64,000 bases of DNA from a virus. The position numbers and the translations under genes are program-made. Below are positions 1,262 through 22,955 of this stretch, piece after piece (the first letter of the stretch is position 1; the number at the start of each line of letters is the position of its first letter). The stretch spans positions 1-64,000 of the IMG/VR virus record IMGVR_UViG_3300036791_000379, one strand, 5' to 3'. The notes under the pieces were generated by a model. That model searched no databases. It was not told the origin of the DNA and worked only from the letters and a program-made list of their open reading frames with translations.

Positions 1262-2132
1262 TTCGCTCGTTCACTTTGGTGCGCTCAAACGATTTGGCTC
1301 GCTCTCTCGTAATGGTGCTCTCTCGATTTCAGGCTCACTCCCACATTTTGGCGCGCTCTCTCATTTCGGTTCGCTCTTTGCCTCTGGTGTTCTCTGCTGT
1401 TTTGGCTCGCTCGTCTATTTCGGCGCGCTCGATGGCCTCGGCTCGCTCGCTATCCATGGTGCTCACAGCAACTTCGGCTCGCTCGCAAAACTTGGTGCTC
1501 TCACGTTGAATGGCTCGCTCTGACTTTTCGGGTGCTCTCCTGTGCATAGGGCTCGCTCGCCTTTATCGGTACTCTCCAGCGTTTTGGCTCACTCCATCGA
1601 TATGGTGCGCTCAGTCCATTGGTTCGCTCTAGTACACTGGTGCAACTCCCAATTTCTGGCTCGTTCAGGCGTCGTGGTGCTCTCGCAAAATTTGACTCGC
1701 TCGACTTCTACGGCGCTCTCCTTGGTCCCGGCTCGCTCTCCTTTTGTGGTGCTCTCGCGTGTTATGGCTCGCTCTGCATCCTTGGTGCTCTCTGTAGATG
1801 GGGCTCGCTCGCCTTTTTTGGTGCGCTCCGTTGAATTGGCTCGCTCCGGGTCCTTTGGTTCTCTCAGCGACTTCGGCTCGCTTATCCAGTCTGGCGCTCT
1901 CCGGCAACACGGCTCGCTCGTCTATTCTGGCGCTCTCGTCTAGTTTGGCTCGCTTCCGAACCTTGGCGCTCTCCATGTTATGGCTCGCTCACGGGGCTTG
2001 GTGCTCACTACAATTTGGCTCGCTCATCATGTTTGGCACTCTCCGAGACTACGGCTCACCCATTAGGGCTGGTGCTCTCGTCCATTTTGGTTCGCTCGGC
2101 GGTCTTGGTGCTCTCAAACAGGTTGGCTCCTT
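1262..2132 (-). repeat. Alternating 18-nt repeat array 1 (about 48 units)
   Basis: Read on the minus strand, units of exactly 18 nt alternate: GAGCGAGCC plus 9 variable bases, then GAGAGCACC (variants GAGCGCACC, GAGAGCGCC) plus 9 variable bases. The period is kept over about 870 nt with only a few 1-nt indels. Stop codons interrupt all frames, and the constant parts are conserved as DNA, so it is not one protein gene. It begins at the stop codon of the DUF6362-like gene and ends at the ATG of the 192-aa gene, filling the whole intergenic space. The same repeat family recurs in two plus-strand arrays. Confidence 0.95.
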
Positions 2133-2786
2133 TCAAAACACTGGTACGCGACCGGCACGCAGGCCTCTGGCGATGATGTCGCAACCTTGGTCGTGTCGTT
2201 GCCGCCATGTGTCGCCGTAGCCGCCGCGTTTCGCTGCGACCCATCCGGCATCGCGCTCCAGTGCATGCGCCAGCGCCACCGCGTTCACTGCGACAATGAT
2301 GTGGAACGATCGCGCCAAAAATTCAGCCGGCCACTGGATCGCGATCTCCATCCGCGAGACCTCGGCAAAACTGGGCAGCAGCCTTGTCCTGTTCTGCAGA
2401 TGCTGGGTCCTCTCCAGCTCGCCCTGCTCGTGCTGGGCCAGCAGGTCCTCGAACGTATAGCAGTGCGGTGGCCACGCCGGCTTGAAGCCCGTGATCGATG
2501 GCATCGGCACCGTGCGCAATATCCGCATCGCCTCGACCAGCCGGCGGCCAACATGAGGCCCTGACCATTTCGACGGAACCTCCTCGTCGAGGACATCCAG
2601 CAGCTCCGGTTCCATTTCACGCTGTCGAGGACGGTCTGGAGGATGGGTCGCGTAACCACCTCCCCTATAGAAGTGGGGGAAGGTGTTACGCTCCCATCCA
2701 TAATCCTCACGTAACAGGTTGTTACGATGTGACGTAACAGTTACGCCGCGCTCGCTTTCTCTCGACTTGTCAGTGACATTCACCAT
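2133..2786 (-). CDS. DUF6362-like protein
   Basis: A 217-residue protein. Residues about 58-165 (from EPELLDVLDEEVPSKW through RRLVEAMRILRTVPMP to EVSRMEIAIQWPAEFL) match the pattern I recall for DUF6362, a phage and prophage family of unknown function. The N-terminal 57 residues are polar and may be disordered. A GGAGG box serves an earlier ATG that encodes a six-codon peptide (MESEKW) whose stop lies just before the ATG used here. That arrangement could couple or attenuate translation. Its stop codon marks the start of repeat array 1. Confidence 0.75.
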   Translation of the reverse strand: MVNVTDKSRESERGVTVTSHRNNLLREDYGWERNTFPHFYRGGGYATHPPDRPRQREMEPELLDVLDEEVPSKWSGPHVGRRLVEAMRILRTVPMPSITGFKPAWPPHCYTFEDLLAQHEQGELERTQHLQNRTRLLPSFAEVSRMEIAIQWPAEFLARSFHIIVAVNAVALAHALERDAGWVAAKRGGYGDTWRQRHDQGCDIIARGLRAGRVPVF

Positions 2787-2884
2787 TTTTCGCTCTCCAT
2801 TTTTCCTCCGATTGAAACGCTTTTGCAGGCGTTGGAACTTTCGTAACAGCGGCGCTTGGCCGTAACATCGGTTTTGCAGCCTTT

Positions 2885-4027
2885 TCAGTCGTCATGATCG
2901 GCCCCTCGCGGCTGCGCGCCGGGCCTGCGCCGCGTCTCGGCCATGGCGATCTCCTGCTCGCCTTGGCTTGTCAGTTCGAGCCGGCCGCGTCGCTTGACGA
3001 CCAGCTTTTCGGCGATCAGGGATTTGATCGTGCGCTGGACCATCACCTTGTAGGGTTGGCCGTCGCCCATGAACCACTGCAGCGTCCGGGCCAGATCAGC
3101 CAGCGATGCGGTCCTGTTGGCCGGCTCCGATAGCGCGGCGAGCAGCTCGTTCTCGCGGAAGTGCGCCGTCTTGGCGATCTCCTCGCGGCCGATCTCGGAC
3201 AGCGGCGAGGCCACCACGGTCGGGATCAGCCGGCCCTTGCTGTCCTTCAGGTCCTGATGCGTCACGGTGCGCAGCTGGAACGTGATCGGTGCGAAGTCCG
3301 GCCCGCGAAATTTTCCCTGCGCCGAAATCTCGATGCTGCCGTCGTGCGCCTTGGCTGCGAGGTTGCCGTCGACCTCGTTGAGGAATGCGCCGCCGCCGCG
3401 CGGGACGAGATTTTCATCGGTGGCGTTCTTGACCGGGTGGCACGCGGCGATCGTGCAGGGCCGGCCCGGCATCTCGGTGAAGCGGCGCAGCAGCCGGGCG
3501 TGGTCGCCTGCCTGCTTGTTGTCGTTCTCGTCGATGCCCTCGAAAAATGCCGCACTGGTGTCGATGAAGATCGCGGCGACGTCGCCAGCCAGCACGATCT
3601 CGGCACGTACACGCTGATACATCTCTGTGATCTTGAACACGCCGGGGATGAAGTTGACGTCGATTGTGCTGATGTCGAAGCCCATCTGTTGCGCCATGGC
3701 GATCCAGCGCATGCGGACGTCGTCGGCATTCTCGCCGGCCAGATACAGCACCTTGCCGCCGTCGACCTCGCGTTCGAGCAGCGGCTTGGCCAGCGCGACA
3801 TGCGAGGCCAGCAGCAACATGAGCGCGGTTTTGCCGGCTCCGGTCTTGCCGGTGAGGCTATAGAAGAACCGCCGCTGCAGCACGCCGTCGAGGATGTAGT
3901 CGGGCGGCACGAAGCCGCGCACGAACTGCTCGCTCGTGAGGATGCGCGGCACGCGCGTCGGCATCGGCACGACCTTGTCGTCCGGGATCGGAACGCGGAC
4001 GTGATCCTCATCCTCATAGTCGGGCAT
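2885..4027 (-). CDS. RepA-like hexameric replicative ATPase/helicase
   Basis: A 380-residue RecA-fold NTPase of the RepA/AAA_25 type. Walker A GKTGAGKT is at residues 60-67, Walker B (IFID) at about 153-156, and a histidine-containing switch region (AACHPVKNA) follows. The C-terminal 90 residues look like a winged-helix tail (TIKSLIAEKLVVKRRGRLELT). The ATG at 4027 is chosen because it overlaps the end of the primase gene by 14 nt; a longer reading would run far into that gene. Next to the Toprim primase it most likely unwinds DNA for phage replication (inference from family and context). Confidence 0.85.
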   Translation of the reverse strand: MPDYEDEDHVRVPIPDDKVVPMPTRVPRILTSEQFVRGFVPPDYILDGVLQRRFFYSLTGKTGAGKTALMLLLASHVALAKPLLEREVDGGKVLYLAGENADDVRMRWIAMAQQMGFDISTIDVNFIPGVFKITEMYQRVRAEIVLAGDVAAIFIDTSAAFFEGIDENDNKQAGDHARLLRRFTEMPGRPCTIAACHPVKNATDENLVPRGGGAFLNEVDGNLAAKAHDGSIEISAQGKFRGPDFAPITFQLRTVTHQDLKDSKGRLIPTVVASPLSEIGREEIAKTAHFRENELLAALSEPANRTASLADLARTLQWFMGDGQPYKVMVQRTIKSLIAEKLVVKRRGRLELTSQGEQEIAMAETRRRPGAQPRGADHDD

Positions 4028-4925
4028 TACGTGCGCTCCACACGTCAGCCTCATCACTGCCCTCGCGTCGTGACTTGAAAACGTCGATTTCCTTGTTGGC
4101 TGCTTTCCACCGTTGAGCACAAATCACGGCGGACTGTTCGCCCGGCCGCTTGCCGGTCTTTGGGTCGACCCGATCATGATCGGCCCAGATTGTCAGAGTG
4201 TTGACGCTTTCGAGGACCGGGAAGCTCTGGATCAGGCTGGTCGAGCCGAGCGCCCACACCGGCCCGCGATCCTGCGCGATGATCGCGAGCCCGGTCTCCA
4301 GCCCTTCGCAGACGTGCAGGCTGCCGTTCTGCAGCCGCTGCAGCTGCATCGCGGCACCCTGCGGCGAGCCGAGCATCATGGGCGTGCCGTCCTTCTTGGC
4401 CTCGCGGGTCAAAAATATCCGCTGGATCGCCAAGAGTGCGTTCGATGTGAAGTGCCGCATCGCGATCACGACCGCCGGCTGCCGGAACTGCTCGCGCGGA
4501 CAATGCGCCTGATAGCGGATGTCGGTGATCATGCGCGCGACCGACCACAGATCGCGCTGCTCGAAATAGCGCTGCGCCAGCGTGCCCTCGATCGGTACCG
4601 CCTCATCGAAGATGCCGCGCGCGAGCGTTCGCATCCGCTCGATCTCGTTGCGCTGCTTTTCGGTTTCTTTGGAAGCGCTACTCTGAAGATCGTACACATT
4701 CCGCGCCGCATCCTGCAGCTCGTTGCCGTGCCACAGGCCGCGCGCCTTCAGCACCGCGATGATCTCGACCGGTTCGCATCCGGCCTTGCAGCGGACCTGC
4801 ACCGACTGCCGGCCGTCGAAGATCAGCATGCTCGGCGTGCGGTCCTCGTGAACGACACAGTGGCACTTGAACTGCCGGCCAGACCGGCGCGCACCCAGTG
4901 CGATGGCGAGCCGCTCGGCACTCAT
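4014..4925 (-). CDS. CHC2-type zinc finger/Toprim DNA primase
   Basis: A 303-residue primase. An N-terminal zinc finger uses Cys21, Cys23 and/or His26, and Cys46 and Cys50 (KCHCVVHEDRTPSM, then VRCKAGC). A Toprim domain follows: the Glu motif CEGLETG at 206-212 and the DxD motif IWADHD with Asp249 and Asp251. The layout fits phage primases with a Toprim_3 domain. It would lay RNA primers for replication and is translationally coupled to the RepA-like helicase downstream. All expected catalytic acids are present. Confidence 0.87.
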   Translation of the reverse strand: MSAERLAIALGARRSGRQFKCHCVVHEDRTPSMLIFDGRQSVQVRCKAGCEPVEIIAVLKARGLWHGNELQDAARNVYDLQSSASKETEKQRNEIERMRTLARGIFDEAVPIEGTLAQRYFEQRDLWSVARMITDIRYQAHCPREQFRQPAVVIAMRHFTSNALLAIQRIFLTREAKKDGTPMMLGSPQGAAMQLQRLQNGSLHVCEGLETGLAIIAQDRGPVWALGSTSLIQSFPVLESVNTLTIWADHDRVDPKTGKRPGEQSAVICAQRWKAANKEIDVFKSRREGSDEADVWSARNARL

Positions 4926-5188
4926 GGCTGTCGCTCCATGCGAACGCGCAAGGCGGTCACCAGTGCGCTGATGCTGCAGCCCTTGCGGATGATGGTGGCC
5001 GGCGGCAGCGACACGTCGCAGGGCAGCACGTCGATCGCGTCGAGCTGGCAGGTCTCCTCATGAAACGCCATGGCGCTGAGACAATCCCTGACGTGCCCCA
5101 TCAGGGCGGTGACCTGCGGCGCGCAGATGTGGGCGCTCGCGACCTCGTCGAGCTTGCGCGCCAGATCGCGCAGCGGGCTCTCGATCAT
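4922..5188 (-). CDS. Hypothetical protein
   Basis: An 88-residue protein with a clear AGGAGG box before the ATG at 5188. It overlaps its neighbours by 4 nt on both sides, so it is part of the primase operon. The sequence has a helical first half (LRDLARKLDEVASAH) and four cysteines, without a recognisable metal-binding spacing. I do not recognise the family. Position suggests an accessory replication role, which is inference only. Confidence 0.75.
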   Translation of the reverse strand: MIESPLRDLARKLDEVASAHICAPQVTALMGHVRDCLSAMAFHEETCQLDAIDVLPCDVSLPPATIIRKGCSISALVTALRVRMERQP

Positions 5189-5556
5189 GCGAACCTCCTC
5201 GCGCGCGGATGCCAGACATGCTGCTTGTGGCGGCCTTTGCCGACGCGGCGGCTGCGCCAGTCGTGCCGGTTGCACCAGTCGATCAGCAGACGCGACGGTT
5301 CGACCAGCACGGGCGTCAGGCCGGCGGCCTCGATCGCTGCGATCAGCCGGGTGAATGCGCCATGGCCGGGCTGGATCGCTGCGATCAGCACCAGCCGGAC
5401 GCGGTCGCCATCGAGGGTGAAGACGCTGTCGGAATCCCACTCGTTCCAGTTCAGCCACGCCGCCGATCGGACCGGCTCAAATCCCTGCGCGTGTTCCAGC
5501 GCGAGGATGCTGGCGCGCGCGATCTCCTTTGGCCGGGCCTCCGTCGAATGGATCAT
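5185..5556 (-). CDS. Hypothetical protein
   Basis: A 123-residue protein, compact and Trp-rich (SAAWLNWNEWDSDSVFTL), with a basic C-terminal tail (WRSRRVGKGRHKQHVW) that could bind nucleic acid. It sits in the tightly packed operon upstream of the primase genes. No family is recognised. Confidence 0.75.
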   Translation of the reverse strand: MIHSTEARPKEIARASILALEHAQGFEPVRSAAWLNWNEWDSDSVFTLDGDRVRLVLIAAIQPGHGAFTRLIAAIEAAGLTPVLVEPSRLLIDWCNRHDWRSRRVGKGRHKQHVWHPRARRFA

Positions 5557-5559
5557 GGG

Positions 5560-5787
5560 TCACCTCCCCGGTCTCGGTCCGCAGTGCGTCTCGATGAACA
5601 GCGCCAGCTCCGGCTCGTCGAACATCACCAGCGCGCGGTAATCCTCAGCGATGGCTTCCATCAGCTCGATCTCGCGTGCCTGCTCGGTATCCGACATCTT
5701 GCCGCGTGTAACGAGGCGCTCGTAGAGCTGATGCCGGAATGCCAGCTCGCGCTCCACGCATTGCAGCTTTTCCTTGGCGGTGATCAT
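5560..5787 (-). CDS. Small acidic helical hypothetical protein
   Basis: 75 residues, mainly alpha-helical with heptad-like charged stretches (ERELAFRHQLYERL and EIELMEAIAEDYR). The start overlaps the stop of the preceding gene by 4 nt. No family is recognised; it may be a small adaptor. Confidence 0.75.
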   Translation of the reverse strand: MITAKEKLQCVERELAFRHQLYERLVTRGKMSDTEQAREIELMEAIAEDYRALVMFDEPELALFIETHCGPRPGR

Positions 5788-6281
5788 TCGACAACTCCGC
5801 GCTCAGCTTTTGCATACTCTTCCGGATGCTCCTGCTGCACTCGCCTTTCGTATTCGGCGGTACGTTCGACAACCATGTCGCGAAATTCCCTGATCACTTC
5901 GATAGAGCTGATGTCGCTGTCATCGAACGCATCATGGACCATCGCGTACAGGTCGGCGTTGGCAATCACCCCATCCTCGCGCGAGTACAGGCAAAGGCTG
6001 GCTTCCTGCTCATCACTTTCATCGCCCTCATCGCGCTTCCAAAAGAAGGTGATACTCAGATCGAGGTCCAGCAGCATGCGTATGAGCAGAGCCGATTGTG
6101 TCTTGGTTAGATCGAGGTCCTCGATCCACCATTCGTAACTGAACTCACACTGCTCGGAGTCGTCTGTCAGCCAATGCTTGAACAGGTAGAACTTGCCGTC
6201 GACATAGTTGACGCCAAACGCTGCGCTCTGTCGGCGATCCTGTTTCGTCACTTTCTCTGAGCTGGCGGTGATCTCGGTCAT
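5784..6281 (-). CDS. Hypothetical acidic protein
   Basis: 165 residues, strongly acidic (DLDLTKTQS, KRDEGDESDEQE). The first half looks like a small beta-rich domain (FGVNYVDGKFYLFKHW) and the C-terminal helix is charged (VVERTAEYERRVQQEHPEEY). The ATG at 6281 is chosen because it overlaps the end of the next upstream gene by 4 nt. Function unknown. Confidence 0.75.
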   Translation of the reverse strand: MTEITASSEKVTKQDRRQSAAFGVNYVDGKFYLFKHWLTDDSEQCEFSYEWWIEDLDLTKTQSALLIRMLLDLDLSITFFWKRDEGDESDEQEASLCLYSREDGVIANADLYAMVHDAFDDSDISSIEVIREFRDMVVERTAEYERRVQQEHPEEYAKAERGVVE

Positions 6282-7165: not shown

Positions 7166-7478
7166 GGTCGTCTCCCTTCAGCTGATCGACCACGGCACCG
7201 ACAATCGATAGCGGCCGACCAAAACTGTCGCGGGTGATGGAATGCTTGATGGTGTCGAGCGACACGCCGTGCTGCAGCGCCATCGACAGCAGCACCGCGC
7301 CGTCTCGCGCGATCGCCTCGACCATCTCGCCGCTCTTGCCTCCAGTGATGAAGACCTCGCCGAGGCTTCCGTCCTCGAACAAGCCTACTGTGATGGTGTG
7401 GCCTTTCGTCAAGCCACCGAACGCCATCTCGAAAGTCTCGCAGCGGCGACGCTGCGGCAGCGCACGACGTTCGCTCAT
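7053..7478 (-). CDS. TSCPD domain protein
   Basis: 141 residues. Residues about 10-95 (RCETFEMAFGG through GLFEDGSLGEVFITGGKSG to LQHGVSLDTIKHSI) match the TSCPD domain, which occurs alone or at the C-terminus of vitamin B12-dependent ribonucleotide reductases. As a stand-alone phage protein its role is unknown; nucleotide metabolism is inferred. The last 45 residues run in an alternative frame over the 55-aa gene and look less ordered, so the true end of the fold is near residue 100. The start overlaps the ParB-DUF5131 gene by 4 nt. Confidence 0.8.
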   Translation of the reverse strand: MSERRALPQRRRCETFEMAFGGLTKGHTITVGLFEDGSLGEVFITGGKSGEMVEAIARDGAVLLSMALQHGVSLDTIKHSITRDSFGRPLSIVGAVVDQLKGDDHDRSAHHRSAFDTGAEEKRADAISQEGSAQRDEGPQG

Positions 7479-8977
7479 TCGGCGGCCTCCCCTATCGGCA
7501 GTTCGCCTTGGGCGCGCCGCAACGGCGGCAGCTTTGGCACCTCTTGGATGAGCTTCATGCCAGCATGTTGTGGGTCGGTGACGCCGAGCAGATTTGGCTT
7601 CTGATAGACCTTGCATCCGGCGGCATGCGCCTGTTCAGTCAGGCGCGCGACCCAATCGAACGGCGGCGCAAATTCCGATATACGTCCGTCCGGCTGCTCG
7701 GTGGCGCTTTGCGAGCCGATGACGACGAAGTCGAACATCGAGAGATCGGAAAATTCGAGCGGTGCCAGCAGCGGCTCCAGCGACAGCCATCTCACCCGCA
7801 CGCCGCTGATCTTCCGGAACGCCTCTTCCGCGATCTTGACTCGATACTGCTCATCGACCGTGGTGCCGATCCACGCAGTTGCCGGCAGATCGAGCCCGAC
7901 GTAGCGCTGCGGGAATTTTGTCAGGAACAGGTACTCCCAGTCCGGGTTGCCGTGCGCAGCGGCAAACACTTTTGCAATCCATTCGTCCGGCACCCACTTG
8001 CCGAACAAATCACCCATCGACGACACAAAAACACGGCCGAGCCGGGGGTCATCTCTGACGGTCTCCGGCACACTGCTGTTGGCCGGCGCTTCCAGCCGAT
8101 AATCGTAGAAGGTTGGTGTGAAGCCGAACGGATAGAACGGCGCGAGATTCCTGTTCATCACCGCGCCTTCGCGCGCGTAGCAGTATTTGCAGTTGTGTAG
8201 GCAGCCGGTCACCGGATTCCATGTCCACGCCGCCCACGACACCTGATCGTTGGTTGCGTTGAACTTCGCCTTGCCCTTCGGCAACTTGTATTCCTTCGTC
8301 TGGCCGTCGTGGCTTCGCACGATGGTGGTTTTGTTGTTGGTGGCGACCACCTCGTTTTCGCTGACCACGGCCGACGCCGCTTCGGCCCGCTTCACCTGTT
8401 TGTAGGCGTCGTTCAGGCTAATGGTGCCAGCGACGACAGCGGCGGCGAGTGTCGGCGAGGACGCCTGAACCTTCTTGCCTTTGCTGACTGCGCCATGGCT
8501 GGTGCCCGTCGCTTTTGCGACTTGGCGGTTAACGCGGCCAGCGGAATTTTTCGGTTGGCCACGCGCGTGGCCACCCGATGTCCGATTTTTCCTTGCCTTT
8601 GCAGACCTTTGGTCACCGCCGCCTTTCGTCATCCGGGCCTTCGCCGCAGCTTCCAGCTCTGGCGCGATCTCCAGTCCGATCATCGCCTTCTGCCCGGCCG
8701 ACAGATCGCGTCGCCGCATATTGGCGCTGAGAATGTAGTTGATGATGTCCAGCTCATCGTAGGACTTCGGAAGATTGCGAAATTTCGGCTCCACGCTGCC
8801 GGCCTTGCACGCCTTCCACCGATTGATGCCATCGACGATGGTGTTGCCGTCCGCCGTCACGGCGATCGGCACATGCTGCCCGTTCACCTTGATGTCGGCG
8901 ACGAGCTGCTCGAACTCTTCGGCGCTGAGCGGCGGAAACTTCGCTGCGACGGGATGAATTTTAAGAGTGTTGGTCAT
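7475..8977 (-). CDS. ParB-like nuclease domain fused to DUF5131 (phage Gp37/Gp68 family)
   Basis: A 500-residue two-domain protein. Residues about 1-120 form a ParB/Srx-type domain, with the signature IVDGINRWKA at 47-56, followed by a basic linker (120-170) and helices. Residues about 240-490 are DUF5131: TWNPVTGC then HNCKYCYAR, giving Cys259, Cys263 and Cys266, a CX3CX2C cluster like that of radical-SAM enzymes. Strands such as FVSSMGDLFGKWVP and IGSQSA are typical of the family. DUF5131 proteins are often paired with TcmP proteins, and a TcmP-like gene lies two genes upstream. The reaction is not established. Confidence 0.87.
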   Translation of the reverse strand: MTNTLKIHPVAAKFPPLSAEEFEQLVADIKVNGQHVPIAVTADGNTIVDGINRWKACKAGSVEPKFRNLPKSYDELDIINYILSANMRRRDLSAGQKAMIGLEIAPELEAAAKARMTKGGGDQRSAKARKNRTSGGHARGQPKNSAGRVNRQVAKATGTSHGAVSKGKKVQASSPTLAAAVVAGTISLNDAYKQVKRAEAASAVVSENEVVATNNKTTIVRSHDGQTKEYKLPKGKAKFNATNDQVSWAAWTWNPVTGCLHNCKYCYAREGAVMNRNLAPFYPFGFTPTFYDYRLEAPANSSVPETVRDDPRLGRVFVSSMGDLFGKWVPDEWIAKVFAAAHGNPDWEYLFLTKFPQRYVGLDLPATAWIGTTVDEQYRVKIAEEAFRKISGVRVRWLSLEPLLAPLEFSDLSMFDFVVIGSQSATEQPDGRISEFAPPFDWVARLTEQAHAAGCKVYQKPNLLGVTDPQHAGMKLIQEVPKLPPLRRAQGELPIGEAAE

Positions 8978-12787: not shown

Positions 12788-13078
12788 TTACTCTTCCCAA
12801 TCATCAGCAACCATGTCTTCGTATTCGTCGATGAACTTGTCGATCGGCCTCACCACCAGCTCGGGCGCGTTGTACTCTTTGGCCGCGTCCATCGTGGCCC
12901 AATAGACCGTGCCGTTGTGAATCACGTACTGACTCGGATAGCCGCCATGGCAGTCGAGCCGCGTCTCGTCGATTATGTCGATCAGCACAGCGACCTTGGC
13001 TTCGTCTGAAAGCGTCAACCAGCCACGTTGCGTTGCTGACGCCTCGTGATCCACGTTTGTTGCGTGACCCGCCATCAT
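12788..13078 (-). CDS. Hypothetical protein
   Basis: 96 residues. The middle contains a beta pattern (QYVIHNGTVYWATMD) and the end is strongly acidic (DKFIDEYEDMVADDWEE). It overlaps the MT-A70 gene by 4 nt and directly abuts the next gene. Function unknown. Confidence 0.75.
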   Translation of the reverse strand: MMAGHATNVDHEASATQRGWLTLSDEAKVAVLIDIIDETRLDCHGGYPSQYVIHNGTVYWATMDAAKEYNAPELVVRPIDKFIDEYEDMVADDWEE

Positions 13079-14082
13079 TCGGCCGCCTCCTGTGCTTCAT
13101 CGCCCCACGCATCCCAACCCGCTCGCGCAGGACCGCGCCGGTTCAGTTCGATCTTCGGCACGTTCGGGAAGTAAGCCTCGATCATCTCGCAGATCGCGTC
13201 CGGCTTTTCCGAGTGCCGGCCGACCACCATCTCGATGACGCTGTCCCATTGCTCGCCCTGCGCCGGGCACGGCACGTCGCCGCGAACGCCGAGCAGCAGA
13301 TGTTCGTGGCGGTTTCGATTCCAGTAGCCGGTGATGATGCGGTCCTTGTGCAGCTCAAAGTTCGTCTTGTAGCCGAAGCCCCACACCGCCATGACCAGCG
13401 CGGCGTGCATCAGCATCGGCGCGGTCGCGCACAGGAACAGCACGCAGTCGTCGGCTGCGATCGACGGCACGTCGCGCGCCGCGATCACCTCGGTGCAGCT
13501 GGTCGGATAATGATTGTCGGCGGCGCGATCCATCCCGGTCAGGCGCGACCACGGCTCGAACCGCCATTCCGGATCGGCGAGGATCACGCCGTACTTTTTC
13601 TCCGGGAGCGCCACGATCTTGGTGGCCAGTGCGATCTCGCGCTCGGCTCGGCGCTCTTTCTTCTCTTCGGTGCTGGTGCCGTCCATCGCGGACCACGCCT
13701 TGCTCACCGCCGCCTCGTTTTTCGCCTCGAATGTCTCCTCGTCCATGTCCGCCAGCTTCATCCAGCGCGAGGATTCGGTCTTGCTGATGCCGAGATCGGC
13801 GAGCTTTGGCTCAACGGGAGTAGCGGCACGCGACCCCCGTAGATTTTGCTTGTTGCGTCCGGTGTGCCGCTCGCCGCTCTTCGCCATCTGGCGCAGCAGC
13901 TGGCCGGCTCGGCGTTCGGCCCGCTTGCGGATTTTTGTGGCGCGCTCGATCAGCTGCCTGTCCTTGGCCTGCTTGGCGTAGGCTTGGGCAGCCACCGCGA
14001 CGTCGCGGATTTGCTTGACGTCGTCGATCCGCGTCGCTTCCGCGAGAGCCTTGCAGGCGGCGTCGTAGCGGATCAGCTTCAT
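13075..14082 (-). CDS. MT-A70 family N6-adenine DNA methyltransferase
   Basis: 335 residues. The N-terminal 150 residues are helical and basic (DRQLIERATKIRKRAERRAG), with a ParB-like or HTH-like part (LADLGISKTESSRWMKLA). The C-terminal domain is MT-A70: VILADPEWRFEPWS carries the catalytic DPEW motif at 170-173 (a DPPW variant), followed by LFLCATAPML, and GYKTNFELHKDRIITGYW resembles the family. It most likely methylates adenine in phage DNA, perhaps to evade host restriction (inference). It is the first gene of the long left minus-strand operon. Confidence 0.88.
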   Translation of the reverse strand: MKLIRYDAACKALAEATRIDDVKQIRDVAVAAQAYAKQAKDRQLIERATKIRKRAERRAGQLLRQMAKSGERHTGRNKQNLRGSRAATPVEPKLADLGISKTESSRWMKLADMDEETFEAKNEAAVSKAWSAMDGTSTEEKKERRAEREIALATKIVALPEKKYGVILADPEWRFEPWSRLTGMDRAADNHYPTSCTEVIAARDVPSIAADDCVLFLCATAPMLMHAALVMAVWGFGYKTNFELHKDRIITGYWNRNRHEHLLLGVRGDVPCPAQGEQWDSVIEMVVGRHSEKPDAICEMIEAYFPNVPKIELNRRGPARAGWDAWGDEAQEAAE

Positions 14083-15121: not shown

Positions 15122-15171
15122 TGCGAAGCCTCCCCAGAACCCCTGCCCGCAGTCTCGTTGTCATAAAACTG

Positions 15172-15411: not shown

Positions 15412-15802
15412 GACAGCGCCGACTACGAACCCAAAAATGCTTTTCGTCAAACTGACATAAATTGTGATCGACCTCCCCTGAAGTAGCACATTCCTGCACA
15501 TTCCCGCACAATTTCTGATCCGGAGAACTGCACATTTCTGCACATTCCTGCACAACGTCTCACATTCCCGTGAGCGCCGGAATTAGCCAGTCATTGGAAT
15601 GTCATCTTGCAATAGCCCGGAAACGGGAGTTGAAATAATCGACGTCACACAGAACGTGTGGAACGCGGCAAGACCGACCAGCGCAGTGCGGTTGCGATTT
15701 TGGAATTAGGCCCCGTTCAACCTTGCGGCGAAGACGGGCGTCCCCCGAAAAAGCAGCTTTCTCGAACCTTTGCTAGTCCAAAAAGCAAGGGGAGTGAATC
15801 TT
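15412..15802. promoter_or_regulatory. Divergent control region with clustered decamer repeats
   Basis: No gene is evident. On the minus strand the decamer GGAATGTGCA and close variants occur in two clusters of about three tandem copies (about 15486-15512 and 15530-15563), with another GGAATGT at about 15595. The tandem 9-10 nt spacing, which puts sites about one helical turn apart on the same face, suggests cooperative binding by the Cro-like protein; replication iterons are another possibility. No convincing sigma70 promoter could be fixed by eye. Confidence 0.6.
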
Positions 15803-16606
15803 ATGCGGTCCGAAGAGTTCGCGTACCAAGAAGGCAAGTTCACCGGCTCGCTGGCACCGCGCGTGATGACGGTGACAGATGCAGCTGAACTCAATCGCCT
15901 CGCGCGGATCAAGGCCGGCACCGAACCATCCGATCCAGAAAACTACGCGATGCGCGCCGGCACTCACATGGAGCCGTTCCTGCGCCGCGAGCTGGAGCGC
16001 GAGTGCGGTCATCCGATCAGCCGCGTCGGCGAGATCGTCGACCATCCGAGCAACTCCACCTTCCGCGTCAAGCTCGACGGTTATCGCGCGTTCGATGACG
16101 CCGTCGTCGAGTTCAAATTCCTGTCTCCGCATTTCCGGCGCGAGCAATTCTTCCCCTACTATTATTGGCAGGTGCTCCTGCAAATGCTGTGTACCGGCGC
16201 GACGCGCGGTGTGCTGTGCGTCGGCCAAGGTACATCACCGCCGGTCGAGCATGAAGTCGCATACGATGAGACCTGCGCCGATGCGCTGATCGAGCGCGGC
16301 AGCGCGTTCATGCTGTGCGTGGCGACCGGTGCCGACCCCTGCCCGATGCCGCCGATCGTGGTGCCCGATAAAATGCGCGTCGTCGATCTCACCAAGGAGA
16401 AGACCAACTGGAGCGACGAGCTGCTGTCGCTGCTGGTGCTGTATCACTCCACCAAGAAGTATGCCGACGCGCACGACGAGGCCGGTGCTGCCGCCCGCAA
16501 GCTGATCCCCGACGATGTCAACCGCGTCTTCGCCGGCCGCTACTGGGTCAACCGGGACAAGCGCGGGCGCGTGTCGATCACATCCAAGGAAAAGGAAGCT
16601 GCATGA
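15803..16606 (+). CDS. YqaJ-like/lambda-exonuclease-type recombination nuclease
   Basis: 267 residues. The PD-(D/E)XK core is visible: AGTHMEPFL with Glu57, KLDGYRAFDD with Asp92, VVEFKF with Glu103 and Lys105, then WQVLLQ with Gln123. This matches YqaJ-type viral exonucleases that resect DNA ends for single-strand annealing. The ATG at 15803 is preceded by AAGGGGAG. It overlaps the Bet-like gene by 4 nt, forming the classical exo-bet pair. Confidence 0.88.
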   Translation: MRSEEFAYQEGKFTGSLAPRVMTVTDAAELNRLARIKAGTEPSDPENYAMRAGTHMEPFLRRELERECGHPISRVGEIVDHPSNSTFRVKLDGYRAFDDAVVEFKFLSPHFRREQFFPYYYWQVLLQMLCTGATRGVLCVGQGTSPPVEHEVAYDETCADALIERGSAFMLCVATGADPCPMPPIVVPDKMRVVDLTKEKTNWSDELLSLLVLYHSTKKYADAHDEAGAAARKLIPDDVNRVFAGRYWVNRDKRGRVSITSKEKEAA

Positions 16607-17607
16607 ACACGCCGCAGACCACCACCGCCATTGCCGTCGCGCAGCCGCGTCTACCGATGCCGCAGGGTGAAGCCGATCCGCGCCGCTGGCGCGTGCTGAC
16701 CGACGCGATCTTTCCGAAAGCGCGATCCGCCGACTCGATTCTCCTCGCGCTGGACTACTGCCGCGCGCGCAATCTCGATGTGATGAAGCGCCCCGTCAAC
16801 ATTGTCCCGATGTACGACGAGCAGCAGAAGAAGTGGATCGAGACGATCTGGCCGTCGATCAACGAGACCCAGATCACCGCCGCGCGCTCGCACGAGTGGG
16901 CCGGCATGGACAAGCCGCAATGGGGTCCTGATGTCACGCGCAAGTTCACCGACGACAGGGGCGGCAGCTACGACGTGACCTTCCCAGAATGGTGTGAGGT
17001 CACGGTCTATCGCATGGTCAAGGGGCAGAAGTGCGCGTTTGTCGACGGGCCGGTGTACTGGATGGAAGCCTATGCGCGCACCTCGGTCGGCGTGCCGAAT
17101 ACGATGTGGCGCAAGCGTCCGCGCGGCCAGCTGCAGAAAGTCGCCAAAGCGGCTTCGCTGCGCGCCGCCTTCCCGGAGGAGAACGCCGGGCCATCCGATG
17201 ACGAGATGGACGGCCAGACGATTTTCGCCGATGCCGGCATCGATCCCGGCGCGGCTCCGGTGCCGCGCGCCGACCTGCCGAAGATTGCGACGCCGCAAAC
17301 GGCGGCAGCGCCGCCGGCAGACGAGCAGACCATGGTGGAGATCATCGACGACACGACCGGCGAGGTCACGACCATCGACATCACCAAGCCGCACCGGATC
17401 GAAGGCCGGACGTGGGCCGACTTTATGGAGCCGATGACGGCGGCGATCCTGCGCTGCAAGGACTTCGCCGAGTACGATGAGTGGATGAAGCTCAATCAGG
17501 AAACGCTGCTCAAGATGAAGGAGACCAAGCCCGAGCTGTTTCAGGTTTTCGACAAGAGCATCTCGGCGAAGCATGCCGAGCTTTCAGCGGGGACGAAAGC
17601 AACATGA
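16603..17607 (+). CDS. bet: Phage recombination protein Bet (RecT family)
   Basis: 334 residues. The first 200 residues match RecT/Bet annealases: RSADSILLALDYCRARNLDVMK, then PVNIVPMYD and MWRKRPRGQLQKVAKAASLRAAFPEE. The C-terminal third is variable and acidic. It anneals complementary strands after resection by the upstream exonuclease, giving RecA-independent recombination. Confidence 0.9.
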   Translation: MNTPQTTTAIAVAQPRLPMPQGEADPRRWRVLTDAIFPKARSADSILLALDYCRARNLDVMKRPVNIVPMYDEQQKKWIETIWPSINETQITAARSHEWAGMDKPQWGPDVTRKFTDDRGGSYDVTFPEWCEVTVYRMVKGQKCAFVDGPVYWMEAYARTSVGVPNTMWRKRPRGQLQKVAKAASLRAAFPEENAGPSDDEMDGQTIFADAGIDPGAAPVPRADLPKIATPQTAAAPPADEQTMVEIIDDTTGEVTTIDITKPHRIEGRTWADFMEPMTAAILRCKDFAEYDEWMKLNQETLLKMKETKPELFQVFDKSISAKHAELSAGTKAT

Positions 17608-18056: not shown

Positions 18057-18081
18057 CGCCCGCCGACTGAAGTGAACCGAT

Positions 18082-18132: not shown

Positions 18133-18159
18133 AACCAGCGTGGAAAAGGAGAAACGCAG

Positions 18160-18603
18160 ATGAAGCAACAGGCGATGATCAAGGAGAGGCCGGACAGGGA
18201 AATGAACGGCGCACCAGCACCGGCCACGCCGGTTGGACCCGTCGCCGAAAACAGCGAGACCGTCGAGACGTCGATCACCGAGATCGCCGGCCACATCAAG
18301 CCGGCCGAGCCGCCGATTCAGGCGAGCGAGATCACGGTGCCGTTCTCCCAGCGCGAGCACACGCTGATGATGGATGCGGTCGACAAGATCGCAACCGAAT
18401 GGATGCATGAGCTGAGCGCCGAGCGCGACTGCTCCACCGAACTGGAGAAGCGGGTGATCGATCGGCTGGCGAAGCTGAAGAACGATCTGACCCAGTTTTT
18501 TCTTTTGGGCAACGCCATCTGCAGCAAGGTCAAACGCGATCAGGAATTTCACGAGAAGCTGCACGTCGAGATCGACAAGCTGGCCGAGGAGCCGGTGACA
18601 TAA
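18160..18603 (+). CDS. Hypothetical helical protein
   Basis: 147 residues. A Pro/Ala-rich flexible N-terminus (about 1-60) is followed by a helical domain (HTLMMDAVDKIATEWMHEL and LEKRVIDRLAKLKNDL). AAGGAG lies close before the ATG. No family is recognised. Confidence 0.75.
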   Translation: MKQQAMIKERPDREMNGAPAPATPVGPVAENSETVETSITEIAGHIKPAEPPIQASEITVPFSQREHTLMMDAVDKIATEWMHELSAERDCSTELEKRVIDRLAKLKNDLTQFFLLGNAICSKVKRDQEFHEKLHVEIDKLAEEPVT

Positions 18604-19320
18604 ATGCCGAAGCCGGAGACCATGGGCACTCGCGAGATTCTGGATGCGGCACGCAGCGCAACAGCTGACGGGCTCAGCATCGTTGAACAGATTCGCGCGG
18701 ACCATGGTCTCGCCGATCGCGCTGATGATGGTCCGCTGACGCTGGCTTGGCGGCAACGCGGCGCTGAGATCGCACCGCTGCCGTCACCACTGAGCGAGCC
18801 GCTGATCGAGATGATCAAGGTCTGCATCGTCGAGTCCGAGCGCACCGGCCGGCTCGTGACGGCTGGCTTGGCGCTAAGGCGACTGCAGGAGCATTGCGAG
18901 GCCTATGACGTGCGCGAGCTGCCGCCGGATGAGCAGGACTGGCAGGCGGTCGTCGCCAAATATATTCCGCTGCCGGCGGCGCGAATTGCCGAGCTGATCG
19001 GCCGCGTGTCCCGCAGCAGCGGCCGGCTGCTTCGTTGCGCCGGGTGCGGTGCCAGCCTGCACAGCCGCTGCGCCTGCGGCGCGCCCTACAGCAGCGGCGA
19101 GCATTCGCCGGTCGAGGCTCCGCCGCTCGCACCCGTGCCGGCCAAGCAAACCGCCCACGACCGCGCCGTCGCCGCCGTCACCGCCCATCCGGAGAAGTCG
19201 GACCGGGCGCTCGCCGCCGAAATTGGCGTGGGACATCAAACAGTTGGCCGGGCGCGCAAGCAACTAGAGGTCAGGAAAGATCATGGACCACTCATGGACC
19301 ACCGCGAGGCAACACCATGA
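18604..19320 (+). CDS. Zinc-ribbon and HTH protein
   Basis: 238 residues. A small Cys cluster CAGCGASLHSRCACG lies at about residues 140-155. The C-terminal 60 residues carry a helix-turn-helix (KSDRALAAEIGVGHQTVGRARKQLE). Likely a DNA-binding phage regulator or replication helper. It overlaps the following gene by 4 nt. Confidence 0.75.
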   Translation: MPKPETMGTREILDAARSATADGLSIVEQIRADHGLADRADDGPLTLAWRQRGAEIAPLPSPLSEPLIEMIKVCIVESERTGRLVTAGLALRRLQEHCEAYDVRELPPDEQDWQAVVAKYIPLPAARIAELIGRVSRSSGRLLRCAGCGASLHSRCACGAPYSSGEHSPVEAPPLAPVPAKQTAHDRAVAAVTAHPEKSDRALAAEIGVGHQTVGRARKQLEVRKDHGPLMDHREATP

Positions 19321-19997
19321 GCCATAATCACCAGCTGAAGTTGAACCAGAGTATCGCGCACCTCGAAATTCCCGAGCGCATGCGCGACCTCAAGATCGAC
19401 AAGCGCGGTTACCCGATCCCGTGGTTCGTCGGCTACGTCGATGGCGAAGCCGATTTTAGATGCATGGACGGCAGCAAGATGGGCGTTGCTGTTCGACTGA
19501 AGCGCTGCTGGCAGTGCGGCAAGCCGCTCGGAAAATTCATGACCTTCGTCATCGGGCCGATGTGCATCGTCAACAGAAATATAAGCGAGCCTCCGAGCCA
19601 TTTGGCCTGTTGTGAGTACGGCGTCCGCGCCTGCCCGTTCCTCACTCAGCCACGCATGCGTCGCAACGAGCGGCACATGCCGGAGGAAGGCACGATCGCC
19701 GGCATCGGCATCATGCGCAATCCCGGCGTCACCGCGCTGTGGACGACGCTGACCTACAAGGCGTGGCGTCCATCGACCGGCGGCGTGCTGTTCGAGATCG
19801 GTGATCCCGAGCATGTCGAGTTCTACGCCGAGGGCCGGCGCGCGACGCGCGCCGAGATTCTCGCGTCGATGGAAAGCGGGCTGCCGCTCCTGATGGAGGT
19901 GGCGGAGCAAGACGGGCCGGATGCGGTCGAAGCGCTGAAGGCGCAGTACGCCAAGGCGCTGCAGCTGCTGCCTGCGGAAAAACAAGAAGCCGGATAA
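19317..19997 (+). CDS. Zinc-binding phage protein (paralogue of the 40910-41446 product)
   Basis: 226 residues. The core reads CWQCGKPLGKFMTFVIGPMC, an N, then an acidic/Pro stretch, C-C and ACPFL. The same order (CGLCG, F-GGPKCVDN, C-TYALQTCPHL) occurs in the 40910-41446 product, so the two are paralogues. The spaced Cys pairs suggest a structural zinc site. Function unknown. Confidence 0.75.
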   Translation: MSHNHQLKLNQSIAHLEIPERMRDLKIDKRGYPIPWFVGYVDGEADFRCMDGSKMGVAVRLKRCWQCGKPLGKFMTFVIGPMCIVNRNISEPPSHLACCEYGVRACPFLTQPRMRRNERHMPEEGTIAGIGIMRNPGVTALWTTLTYKAWRPSTGGVLFEIGDPEHVEFYAEGRRATRAEILASMESGLPLLMEVAEQDGPDAVEALKAQYAKALQLLPAEKQEAG

Positions 19998-20032
19998 GCC
20001 AACAGTGCAAGCGTGAGTGACGGGAGGGAATT

Positions 20033-20422
20033 GTGCCAACAACAAAGACCAACACCAGCGAGGCGGTGCCGAAGGCCGTCATCGATGCATTCAAATTCAT
20101 CAGGCGGGAAAAATCGCCGGATGAAATCAAGGACAATCTGCTACGCCGCTACATGGAAGCGTCCAACAACAAAGGTGGGGAGATCAACGCCGAGAGGAAT
20201 GCCATGACCAGCAGAGGTGACGGGAGGACACGAACACGCGAGCCACCTGAGATGATCAAAATGGTCGACGTCGTCAAATCGACCGGCCATCACCGCAACA
20301 CCATCAACAATCTGGTGAAGAAAAAACAATTCCCGAAGCCGGTGCGGCCGAACGGCACCATCCGCTACTGGTTCAAGGAGGAGGTTGATCTCTGGAAAAA
20401 AGGAAAGTGGCGCTATGACTGA
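20033..20422 (+). CDS. AlpA/MerR-like HTH protein
   Basis: 129 residues starting at a GTG with a good GGGAGGG box. The C-terminal 60 residues (MVDVVKSTGHHRNTINNLVK ... IRYWFKEEVDLWKKG) resemble AlpA/excisionase-type winged helices. The N-terminal 60 residues are polar. Likely a small DNA-binding regulator. Confidence 0.75.
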   Translation: MPTTKTNTSEAVPKAVIDAFKFIRREKSPDEIKDNLLRRYMEASNNKGGEINAERNAMTSRGDGRTRTREPPEMIKMVDVVKSTGHHRNTINNLVKKKQFPKPVRPNGTIRYWFKEEVDLWKKGKWRYD

Positions 20423-21281
20423 CATCGATCTCGAACATCGGCCATCCGCCGGTCGCCTGTCGCGCGATCTCGTCAAGGCATCGGTGACGCTGTCCGACAA
20501 GGAGGCGCGCTTCCTCGTGGACGCCTATTACATCATGCAGGAGGATCGCAAGCGCGCGAACAATCAGGTCCGCGCGATGAAGACCGAGCCGCATCTGTTG
20601 ATCGGCTGGATCGCCGAGCAGAACGAGACGCTGGAGAGCCAGATCAAGCGCGCGCTCGAAAGCTATTCCGAGAGCCATTTGATCGGCCAATGGATGAAAT
20701 CGATCTACGGCATCGGCCCGGTGATCGCCGCCGGCATGATGGCGCACATCGACATCACCAAGTCGCCGACAGCCGGGCACATCTGGCGCTTCGCCGGCTA
20801 CGATCCCACGGTGAAGTGGGAGAAGAGCCAGAAGCGGCCATGGAACGCGGCGCTGAAGACCCTGTGCTGGAAGGTCGGGCAGAGCTTCATGAAGTTCTCC
20901 GGCAGCGAGGAGTGCGTCTACGGCACGGTGTATCGCGAGCGCAAGGCCTACGAGGTTGCGCGCAACGATCGCGGCGACAATGCAGAGCTGGCGGCGCGGA
21001 CGCTGGAGGCGCGCAAGTTCAAAAAGGACACCGAGGCGTTCAAGGCCTACACGATCGGCAAGCTGCCGGCCGGCCAGATCGACGCGCGGGCGCGGCGCTA
21101 CGCGGTCAAGCTGTTCCTGTCGCATCTGCAGCTGGTCTGGTTCTGGATGCATTTCCAGAAGTTGCCGGCGAAGCCCTACGCGCTCGGCCACCTCGATCAC
21201 ACCCACTTCATCGATCCGCCCAACGTCGAGCTGGTCGATGGATTGCTCCCGGCGCTGCGCGCCGAAGGCCTGATGCACTGA
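20415..21281 (+). CDS. Transposase_20-like (IS110/IS116 C-terminal) domain protein
   Basis: 288 residues. MKSIYGIGPVIAAGMMAHIDI then IWRFAGYDP at about 95-130 matches the helix-hairpin-helix pattern of the IS110/IS116/IS902 C-terminal domain (Transposase_20). The RuvC-like DEDD catalytic domain of true IS110 transposases is not visible, so it is probably not an active transposase. Similar proteins occur in phages with unknown function. Repeat array 2 follows directly. The ATG at 20415 overlaps the upstream gene by 8 nt. Confidence 0.7.
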   Translation: MTDIDLEHRPSAGRLSRDLVKASVTLSDKEARFLVDAYYIMQEDRKRANNQVRAMKTEPHLLIGWIAEQNETLESQIKRALESYSESHLIGQWMKSIYGIGPVIAAGMMAHIDITKSPTAGHIWRFAGYDPTVKWEKSQKRPWNAALKTLCWKVGQSFMKFSGSEECVYGTVYRERKAYEVARNDRGDNAELAARTLEARKFKKDTEAFKAYTIGKLPAGQIDARARRYAVKLFLSHLQLVWFWMHFQKLPAKPYALGHLDHTHFIDPPNVELVDGLLPALRAEGLMH

Positions 21282-21284
21282 GCC

Positions 21285-21500
21285 ATCAACGGTGAGAGCG
21301 CCATACTCGCGGAGCGAGCCAATGCAGGGAAGAGCACCAACGACCCGGAGCGAGCCAACCTCGGTGAGCGCACCAAAAAACGGGAGCGAGCCTTATCCAC
21401 GAGCGCACCAGATTTCGTGAGCGAGCCTATCCCGGATGAGAGCACCAAAGTCGAAGAGCGAGCCGAATATGCAGAGAGCACCAGATAGTATGAGCGAGCA
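21285..21500 (+). repeat. Alternating 18-nt repeat array 2 (about 12 units)
   Basis: The same alternating unit as array 1, here on the plus strand: GAGAGCGCC-N9-GAGCGAGCC-N9-AGAGCACC and so on. It starts within a few bases of the stop codon of the Transposase_20-like gene. Its last motif (ATGAGCGAGC) contains the start codon of the next gene. Variants include GAGCGCACC for the second motif. Confidence 0.95.
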
Positions 21501-21996
21501 AACCGCACCATTGAACAAGAACGAGGTCGACGAGCTGGTCGATCGCCTCGACAGTCTGCTTGTCACCGGACTGTCGCAGCTCCGGAGCGGCAACGCCGAC
21601 GAAACACTGATGGTGCTGCAGGAGGCGCTGCAGACGGCGCAGCGGCTCCCGATGAAAGCCGACTCCGACGAGAGCGTCATCACGATCGAGCAGCTGACCA
21701 AGGACGAGCGCTTCCTGCTCGAATGGCTGAGCAAGGAAGACTTCAGTCAATATGGAGAATGCCACGGCAAATCGCTCGACGGGCTGATCGCCAAGGGCCT
21801 CGCCCAGCTCCACGGCGCGGAGACCGAGCGCAACAACACGTTCATCGCCAAGGGCGACGGCATCATGTTCCGCGCAGTATCGCTGACCGAAAAGGGCTGG
21901 GGCCTGATCAAGGAAATGCGATCATGTTGTACGACCCACACTTCTGGATCGGAATCGGAATCGGGACCTTCCTCGGGGCCAACTTCGGCATCCTGA
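21490..21996 (+). CDS. Hypothetical protein beginning inside array 2
   Basis: 168 residues. The first codons ATG AGC GAG C are the last repeat motif of array 2, and no separate Shine-Dalgarno box is seen. The N-terminal half is helical and acidic. The C-terminal part (LLEWLSKEDFSQYGECHGKSLDGLIAKGLAQL ... SLTEKGWGLI) looks like a winged helix. Function unknown. Confidence 0.75.
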   Translation: MSEQTAPLNKNEVDELVDRLDSLLVTGLSQLRSGNADETLMVLQEALQTAQRLPMKADSDESVITIEQLTKDERFLLEWLSKEDFSQYGECHGKSLDGLIAKGLAQLHGAETERNNTFIAKGDGIMFRAVSLTEKGWGLIKEMRSCCTTHTSGSESESGPSSGPTSAS

Positions 21997-22151
21997 TCAT
22001 GGGCATAATGATGCTGGGCAAGGACGAACCGGCAGTCCCGCCGTTGCCCTCGCCGCCACGCGACGACGTCGAAGCCTCCGGCGATCATCATGATCACCGG
22101 CTGGCACCGGACTATCCCGGCGAGAAGCAGCGGCTGGAATGGAAACGGTGA
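21924..22151 (+). CDS. Small membrane protein
   Basis: 75 residues with one transmembrane helix near the N-terminus (FWIGIGIGTFLGANFGILIM) and a Pro/His-rich soluble tail. It starts 73 nt inside the preceding gene. Its stop codon TGA is part of the first repeat motif of array 3 (cggTGAGCGAGCC). Confidence 0.75.
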   Translation: MLYDPHFWIGIGIGTFLGANFGILIMGIMMLGKDEPAVPPLPSPPRDDVEASGDHHDHRLAPDYPGEKQRLEWKR

Positions 22152-22951
22152 GCGAGCCCGCGTCCATGAGAGCACCAAGCTGAGCGAGCGAGTCACTACA
22201 GCTGAGAGCGCCAAGTAAAATGAGCGAGCCGATCCCACGATGAGCACCATGGATGATGAGCGAGCCGACATGCGCGAGAGCACCACCATAGTCGAGCGAG
22301 CCATGCTTCGTGAACGCACCAAGTTGAGCGAGCGAGCCAATGAAATCCGCGAGCGCCAAGGCACATGAGCGAGCCGTTACGCAGAGAGCACCATCACAGA
22401 GGAGCGAGCCAAAGGAGTGCAAGGACACCACACTCCACCGAGCGAGCCGAGCGCATTGAGCGCACCAACATGAGTGAGCGAGTCAATGATGCCGAGAGCG
22501 CCATTGGGATGAGCGAGCCATTGATACCGAGCGCACCAAAAATAGAGAGCGAGCCGTGACGCGGAGAGCACCAAGGCGAAGCAGCGAGCCATTCTATCCG
22601 GGAGAGCACCACATCCTCGGAGCGAGCCGGGATGACCGAGAGCGCCACATCCAGTGAGCCCAATACAAGAGAGAGCACCGTAGCGCTGGAGCGAGCCATC
22701 ACGCAGGAGAGCACCGAGAAACGAGAGCGAGCCATGCGAATGGAGAGCACCACATCCTCGGAGCGAGCCGGTTGGGAAGAGAGCACCGAAAAACGAGAGC
22801 GAGCCGGTCCTGATGAGAGTACCGAATTAAGGGAGCGAGCCACACGAGCAGAGCGCACCACGCACCATGAGCAGCCGAGCACATCGAGAGCGCCATCGAG
22901 ATGGAGTGAGCCAACGTCAGGAGAGCACCAAACACGTTGAGCGGAAATATC
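22149..22951 (+). repeat. Alternating 18-nt repeat array 3 (about 44 units)
   Basis: GAGCGAGCC and GAGAGCACC alternate with 9-nt variable spacers for about 800 nt. Some longer identical blocks recur: GAGAGCACCACATCCTCG starts at both 22602 and 22743, and a spacer GA(G/A)AAACGA occurs twice, evidence of local duplication. A few units are shortened or indel-bearing. The array starts at the stop of the small membrane protein gene and runs up to the promoter of the excisionase gene. Confidence 0.95.
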
Positions 22952-22955
22952 ACCA

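What the first reader, a model, noticed from the sequence alone, without database searches (positions are those of the whole stretch)
1262..22951. Three arrays of a strictly 18-nt alternating two-motif repeat with variable 9-nt spacers
Arrays at 1262-2132, 21285-21500 and 22149-22951 (about 48, 12 and 44 units) alternate GAGCGAGCC-N9 and GAGAGCACC-N9. Nine conserved bases, nine variable, always alternating, over more than 1.8 kb in total. No CRISPR, iteron, operator or satellite I know has this pattern, and no continuous protein can be read through. The conserved 9-mers imply a protein or RNA that reads both motifs in order, so this could be a new kind of binding array, partition site, RNA scaffold or decoy.
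Basis: seen in the sequence. Interest (0 to 1): 0.95.

Follow-up and report, generated by a model that had tools for sequence, protein, structure and literature searches.

The report
Phage TIGR guide-RNA arrays with TasA
The repeats are arrays of tiny paired guide RNAs, belonging to the recently described TIGR-Tas system, carried by a soil-type phage next to the gene for the protein that uses them; they are a real RNA-guided DNA-targeting system, but not an unknown kind of repeat.

Summary
Three arrays alternate GAGCGAGCCR-N8 and GAGAGHRCCR-N8 every 18 nt. They are dual-repeat TIGR arrays (tandem interspaced guide RNA; Faure et al. 2025, PMC12045711). GAGCGAGCCR is the edge repeat, GAGAGCACCR the loop repeat, and the unit is a 36-nt tigRNA. 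The gene upstream of array 2 (20415-21281 +) encodes TasA, a solo Nop-domain protein: its closest solved structures, by profile and by fold, are TasR and TasH. The same arrays lie beside tasA in hundreds of IMG/VR loci; TasA relatives with other repeats also have 36-nt arrays. RNA function is supported by covariation: edge-repeat changes are compensated in the NEXT edge repeat, i.e. between the two ends of one tigRNA, not within one repeat.

Beyond the paper: (i) arrays sit in operons, starting on the stop codon of one gene and ending at the start of the next; (ii) some arrays, like array 1, lie far from tasA yet keep compensatory changes, so probably act in trans; (iii) related arrays gain and lose whole 36-nt units internally, very fast relative to tasA. 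Natural targets were sought and not found. New member of a known kind, with useful evolutionary data.

The parts
20415..21281 (+). tasA: solo Nop-domain (IS110 C-terminal-like) TIGR-associated protein, 288 aa; the only tas gene in the 96-kb record
   Evidence: PDB profile search: TasR 9mty E 1e-22, TasH 21kl 2e-13, IS621 9e-5; AF2 pLDDT 89.2, pTM 0.87; top 10 Foldseek hits all TasH or TasR; one copy in the record
21276..21500 (+). TIGR array 2, about 6 tigRNA units; first (truncated) edge repeat contains the TGA of tasA, last edge repeat overlaps the ATG of the next gene
22150..22943 (+). TIGR array 3, about 22 tigRNA units; starts on the TGA (22149-22151) of gene 21933-22151 and ends with truncated edge GAGCG
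1264..2133 (-). TIGR array 1, about 24 tigRNA units, 18.3 kb from tasA on the opposite strand; edge changes compensated in trans
20033..20422 (+). helix-turn-helix / excisionase-like DNA-binding protein just upstream of tasA
   Evidence: phrog_66 E 5.5e-8, phrog_597
21490..21996 (+). unknown 168-aa protein between arrays 2 and 3; its start codon lies in the last edge repeat of array 2
   Evidence: no Pfam or PHROG match
21933..22151 (+). small 72-aa protein, hydrophobic stretch by eye, whose stop codon starts array 3
23023..23397 (+). HTH_17 / excisionase-like protein after array 3
   Evidence: Pfam HTH_17 E 1.4e-9 (ORF from 22867); phrog_66
23217..24548 (+). tyrosine integrase
   Evidence: Pfam Phage_integrase E 6.9e-12; phrog_216

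Best explanation
The arrays are TIGR dual-repeat arrays served by the phage's TasA protein. They are co-transcribed with the neighbouring genes, and the array RNA is cut in the middle of each edge repeat (GAGCG|AGCCR) into 36-nt tigRNAs of layout edge half, spacer A (8 nt), loop repeat, spacer B (8 nt), edge half. The two ends of each tigRNA pair with each other, and a TasA dimer holds it as a figure-eight. Spacers A and B would pair with opposite strands of a DNA site, so TasA binds, opens and bends that site. TasA has no nuclease domain, so the likely outcome is occupation or silencing of DNA of competing elements rather than cutting. Shown here: arrays, TasA identity and fold, association, sense orientation, covariation across one unit, whole-unit turnover. 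Inferred from TasR/TasH work: processing, dimer, dual-strand targeting, bending. Inferred with least support (about 0.5): the use against competing mobile elements. The confidence below is for the identification as a TIGR-TasA system with array-derived guide RNAs.
For: TasA matches TasR and TasH by profile and fold. In loci holding tas, 268 of 340 arrays lie within 100 bp of it on the same strand. Of 77 new loci found with TasA alone, 62 have the same motif and the other 15 give a period signal near 36 nt, most of them beside the gene (three read directly). Arrays begin and end with truncated GAGCGAGCC copies, as published for edge repeats. Covariation between the two ends of one unit: 117 vs 6 mbit for p4/p7 and 267 vs 109 mbit for p3/p8, compared with the same repeat; T-A pairs 69 vs 0. 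Box C third base is fixed per locus. 102 of 114 arrays with both neighbours called are co-directional with both genes.
Against: No natural target was found: spacer pairs match 3.3 Mb of related phage DNA and their own loci no more often than shuffled pairs. Scans of IMG/VR for two conserved units gave hits that look like chance. Processing and RNA binding are not measured. The usual terminator after a published TIGR array was not found here. Whether the purine after CC pairs with the target is not known.
Confidence: 0.95

Rival explanations
1. The arrays are double-stranded DNA binding sites (partition, packaging or nucleoid-like array) read by a sequence-specific DNA-binding protein.
For: Regular spacing with conserved 10-mers; ParB-like and HTH genes are present in the window.
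Against: Strong sense-strand bias relative to genes; compensatory base-pair changes between repeats 36 nt apart that make sense only in single-stranded RNA; constant link to a Nop-domain RNA-guided protein family.
Confidence: 0.03
2. The gene beside the arrays is an ordinary IS110-type transposase and the arrays are unrelated or relic repeats.
For: Pfam Transposase_20 (E 2.5e-4) and PHROG label 'transposase'.
Against: All-helical solo Nop fold with no DEDD catalytic domain; TasR and TasH score far better than IS621; the array is kept under compensatory selection and follows the gene across many loci.
Confidence: 0.02
3. On function: TIGR-TasA regulates the phage's own genes or guides its own integration, rather than acting on other elements.
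For: Arrays sit in the window beside excisionase-like and integrase genes; Faure et al. suggest TasA could aid integrases; integrase within 3 genes of 20 of 344 arrays against 12.3 +- 2.9 at random positions.
Against: The integrase excess is small and the rows are not independent; spacer pairs do not match their own phage DNA more than shuffled pairs (limited to the DNA held); guide content turns over quickly between close relatives, unlike a regulator of conserved own genes.
Confidence: 0.25
4. Array 1, 18 kb from tasA, is a decaying leftover without function.
For: It lies in another operon on the other strand and has more repeat variants than arrays 2 and 3.
Against: Its non-consensus end pairs that could be read in both partners (units 2098, 1703, 1630) are Watson-Crick compensated in the next edge repeat; spacing is kept over about 24 units.
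Confidence: 0.12

Closest known systems
TIGR-TasA dual-repeat systems (Faure et al. 2025, PMC12045711; example Flavonifractor plautii FpTIGR)
   Same: Two alternating short repeats, 36-nt unit, truncated edge repeats at both array ends, solo Nop-domain protein, array beside the gene; TIGR loci are common in phages.
   Different: Different repeat sequences; 8-nt spacers; up to about 40 units per array; arrays embedded in operons without a recognised terminator and fused to stop codons; additional remote arrays.
TIGR-TasR (9mty) and TIGR-TasH (Salicola phage CGphi29; 21kl, 9w04)
   Same: Nop core, box C-like CC(A/G), edge pairing between the two ends of a tigRNA; SpTIGR has a total of 16 variable nt per tigRNA, as here.
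   Different: They carry RuvC or HNH nuclease domains; TasA here has none. Only 28% identity over 31% of the query to the CGphi29 protein.
IS110/IS1111 transposases with bridge/seek RNA (IS621, 8wt6)
   Same: Distant homology of the Nop-like RNA-binding domain.
   Different: IS110 has a DEDD domain and a single bridge RNA; no arrays.
CRISPR arrays
   Same: Repeat-spacer array giving guide RNAs; spacer content turns over fast.
   Different: Two alternating repeats, 8-nt spacers, no cas genes seen, gains and losses internal rather than at one end.

Membership tests
TIGR-Tas (dual-repeat type) | Two distinct alternating 8-12-nt repeats with short spacers, 36-nt unit | tested here: met
   10 + 8 + 10 + 8 nt; 3466 of 3899 steps exactly 18 nt, 3490 of 3727 short steps alternate
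TIGR-Tas (dual-repeat type) | Array begins with 5'-truncated and ends with 3'-truncated edge repeat | tested here: met
   Half GAGCGAGCC copies at both ends in the window and many related arrays
TIGR-Tas (dual-repeat type) | Neighbouring protein with a Nop domain of the Tas family | tested here: met
   TasR E 1e-22, TasH 2e-13; Foldseek top 10 all Tas
TIGR-Tas (dual-repeat type) | Edge-repeat base pairs between the two ends of one tigRNA, with covariation | tested here: met
   Mutual information 117 vs 6 and 267 vs 109 mbit, trans vs same repeat
TIGR-Tas (dual-repeat type) | Box C/D motifs agree between edge and loop repeats | tested here: met
   Both start GAG and end CCR; third base A or G fixed per locus
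TIGR-Tas (dual-repeat type) | Array processed to 36-nt RNAs bound by Tas | not testable with these tools
   needs RNA sequencing
TIGR-Tas (dual-repeat type) | Spacers A and B direct binding to opposite strands of one DNA site | tested here: inconclusive
   No excess of spacer-pair matches in related phage DNA or own loci
TIGR-Tas (dual-repeat type) | Rho-independent terminator after the array (typical, not universal) | tested here: not met
   No plus-strand terminator-like site found in 19900-24700; arrays run on to the next gene
TasR / TasH subtype | N-terminal RuvC or HNH nuclease | tested here: not met
   288-aa all-helical model; no nuclease domain in Pfam
IS110 transposase | N-terminal DEDD (RuvC-like) catalytic domain | tested here: not met
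   Only Transposase_20 positions 4-45 match; all-helical model without a RuvC-like sheet
CRISPR-Cas | cas genes and a single repeat | tested here: not met
   Two alternating repeats; no cas gene among the neighbours searched

The most novel reading that the evidence does not exclude
A nuclease-free TIGR-TasA clade of environmental phages keeps a dispersed, fast-changing guide repertoire: arrays embedded in operon mRNAs at several places in one genome all feed one TasA in trans, and whole 36-nt guide units are gained and lost internally by an unknown, unpolarised mechanism, giving RNA-guided DNA binding for inter-phage competition.
Probability: 0.45. Interest if true: 0.75.

Novelty: new member of a known kind. 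Interest (0 to 1): 0.58.

Why it matters
TIGR-Tas is a recent family whose natural targets, TasA function and array growth are open questions (stated in PMC12045711). This clade gives hundreds of related natural arrays and thousands of guide pairs with the same repeats. It shows by covariation that the tigRNA unit is selected in nature, that arrays far from tas are maintained, and that guides turn over as whole units much faster than tasA. That makes the question of how TIGR arrays grow, and against what, directly testable.

Tried and rejected
Rfam (no match), tRNAs (none) and the literature by motif string led nowhere. Protein-coding repeat rejected: spacers are uniform in composition and indels of 1 nt occur. 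Target search in four geometries and several gaps against shuffled pairs: on 1.25 Mb a small excess at gap 2 also appeared in other geometries and vanished on 3.3 Mb. Own-locus targets: no excess. Whole-IMG/VR scans for two conserved units: hits look like chance, and the gap-2 preference of one pattern can be read as codon structure. Integrase association weak. General splitting of genes by the cassette was not supported by an automatic test. Plasmid records hold no relative.

Full report
OBSERVATION. The three arrays are real. Reading, they alternate GAGCGAGCC and GAGAGCACC (often GAGCGCACC or GAGAGCGCC) with spacers that are usually 9 nt. In the 96-kb virus record the paired pattern (up to 3 mismatches) occurs 35 times, all in the three arrays, against 1 for the reversed pattern. 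It is therefore a phage-borne repeat class.

ANATOMY. In 3899 unique steps the consensus is GAGCGAGCCR-N8-GAGAGHRCCR-N8. The purine after CC is about 96% conserved, so the repeats are 10 nt and the spacers 8. Spacers are nearly all different (3340 distinct 9-mers among 3466 steps of exactly 18 nt) and near-uniform in composition. Of 151 distinct arrays, 102 lie between two genes that both run in the array's direction; only 2 run against both. The first repeat is usually a half GAGCGAGCC fused to the stop codon of the upstream gene (TGA-GCC, TAG-CCR, TAA-GCC), so the first full repeat begins 11-13 nt after the stop in 44 of the 83 or so arrays with a close upstream gene. The last is often a half copy, GAGCG, just before the next start codon. 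In the window, array 2 starts on the stop codon of tasA and ends on the ATG of gene 21490-21996, and array 3 starts on the TGA of gene 21933-22151.

THE PROTEIN. Clustering genes beside arrays gave one dominant family, in 96 loci. In the window it is 20415-21281. Its profile finds TasR 9mty (1e-22), TasH 21kl (2e-13) and IS621 (9e-5) in the PDB. The AlphaFold2 model (pLDDT 89.2, pTM 0.87) is all-helical, and its ten best PDB matches are all TasH or TasR, followed by IS110 transposases. It lacks RuvC and HNH domains, so it is a TasA. The record has one copy. Among 50,697 phage records only Salicola phage CGphi29 has a weak relative, which is the TasH phage of the TIGR paper.

ASSOCIATION. Of 77 new loci kept, 62 carry the same repeats; the other 15 give a period signal near 36 nt, in most of them beside the gene. 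Three were read: edge GATTGAAACA with loop GAGAGCACCA, GAGTGAACCA with GAGAGTTCCA, GAATGAATCA with GAGAGAACCA. In these edges position 3 pairs with 8 and position 4 with 7 (G-C, T-A or A-T), by eye. 268 of 340 arrays in loci with a tas gene lie within 100 bp of it on the same strand.

COVARIATION. In 3384 unique units, position 4 of the downstream edge repeat covaries with position 7 of the upstream edge repeat (C-G 2792, T-A 69, G-C 6, A-T 4, wobble T-G 68), while within the same repeat T-A is 0. Mutual information is 117 against 6 mbit; for positions 3 and 8 it is 267 against 109. The same-repeat comparison controls for relatedness. The paired bases are thus the two ends of one edge-A-loop-B-edge unit, exactly the 36-nt tigRNA of Faure et al., in whose TasR structure the pairs lie between different edge repeats of a processed tigRNA. 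This is direct evidence of selection on a processed RNA.

THE REMOTE ARRAY. Array 1 lies 18.3 kb from tasA on the other strand. Its readable non-consensus end pairs are compensated: units starting at 2098 (T-A), 1703 (A-T) and 1630 (T-A). In all remote arrays (over 2 kb), of 19 non-consensus pairs 6 are Watson-Crick, 10 wobble and 3 mismatched; within the same repeat 0 of 22 are Watson-Crick. 23 remote arrays were seen, some from the same contig. I infer that they serve TasA in trans.

ARRAY EVOLUTION. Related arrays share whole units in the same order, with whole 36-nt units gained or lost inside the array (28 pairs: 266 matched, 411 internal unmatched, 76 leading, 113 trailing; examples). 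At 90-94% TasA identity 12% of units are shared on average, at 95-98% 18%, at 99% and over 98%, and below 80% almost none (exact identity of both spacers was required, so point changes also count as loss). Sharing of one spacer with an unrelated partner is 113-142 pairs against about 71 expected by chance with uniform base use, so most is probably chance and spacers mostly travel in pairs. The paper names array expansion as an enigma.

TARGETS. From the paper's cutting rule and 8-nt 3' overhang I derived the target geometry spacer A then reverse complement of spacer B with 0-2 bp between (my derivation). No excess over shuffled pairs was found in 3.3 Mb of related phage DNA or in own loci including all 96 kb of the window's record. 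The natural targets remain unknown.

MECHANISM. Shown: arrays, TasA identity, sense orientation, unit-level covariation, turnover. By homology to TasR/TasH: processing in the edge repeat, dimer, pairing to both DNA strands, DNA bending. Inferred: with no nuclease, TasA probably occupies target DNA and blocks transcription or replication of competing elements; own-gene regulation or help to integration is the main rival. Integrase proximity in the window (arrays, excisionase-like gene, integrase) is suggestive only; across loci the excess is small.

VERDICT. A TIGR-TasA system: new member of a known kind. That features (i)-(iii) of the summary go beyond the paper rests on its main text; its supplementary figures and tables could not be read here.

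Noticed in passing
L033:9840-13245; L028, L065, L076, L080: In L033 the array-tasA-array cassette lies between what look like the ATPase half and the nuclease half of a terminase large subunit (family judged by eye, not searched); in related loci the cassette lies beside one such half. It may mark an insertion site in a packaging gene.
   Followed up: partly
window 7475-8977 and 13075-14082: A ParB-like protein (phrog_4715) and a DNA methyltransferase (phrog_359), both also matching phrog_21315. The TIGR paper reports occasional ParB neighbours of TasA; here they are 6-13 kb away.
   Followed up: no
window 55012-57639 (-): Large tail-fibre gene with 9-nt repeats (collagen-like); with baseplate wedge genes at 59939-61803 it suggests a contractile-tailed temperate phage.
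   Followed up: no
window 15770-17607: RecE-like exonuclease and single-strand annealing protein upstream of the tasA operon.
   Followed up: no
L144, L145, L155, L156 (Acidobacteria MAG contigs), L141 and L143 (Gemmatimonadetes MAG): The same arrays occur on contigs binned to Acidobacteria (including Solibacter and Bryobacterales) and Gemmatimonadetes; tas is found in three of the five genomes checked. This hints at hosts of this phage group, or at binned phage contigs.
   Followed up: partly
own-locus target test, 61 loci: In the expected target geometry, own-locus near matches (2 mismatches or fewer, gaps 0-2) were fewer than for shuffled pairs (28 vs 46), a weak hint of self-avoidance that may be chance.
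   Followed up: partly
window 43866-45203 (+): 445-aa protein matching phrog_850 (RNA-binding protein, E 9e-48) in the same phage; relation to tigRNAs unknown.
   Followed up: no
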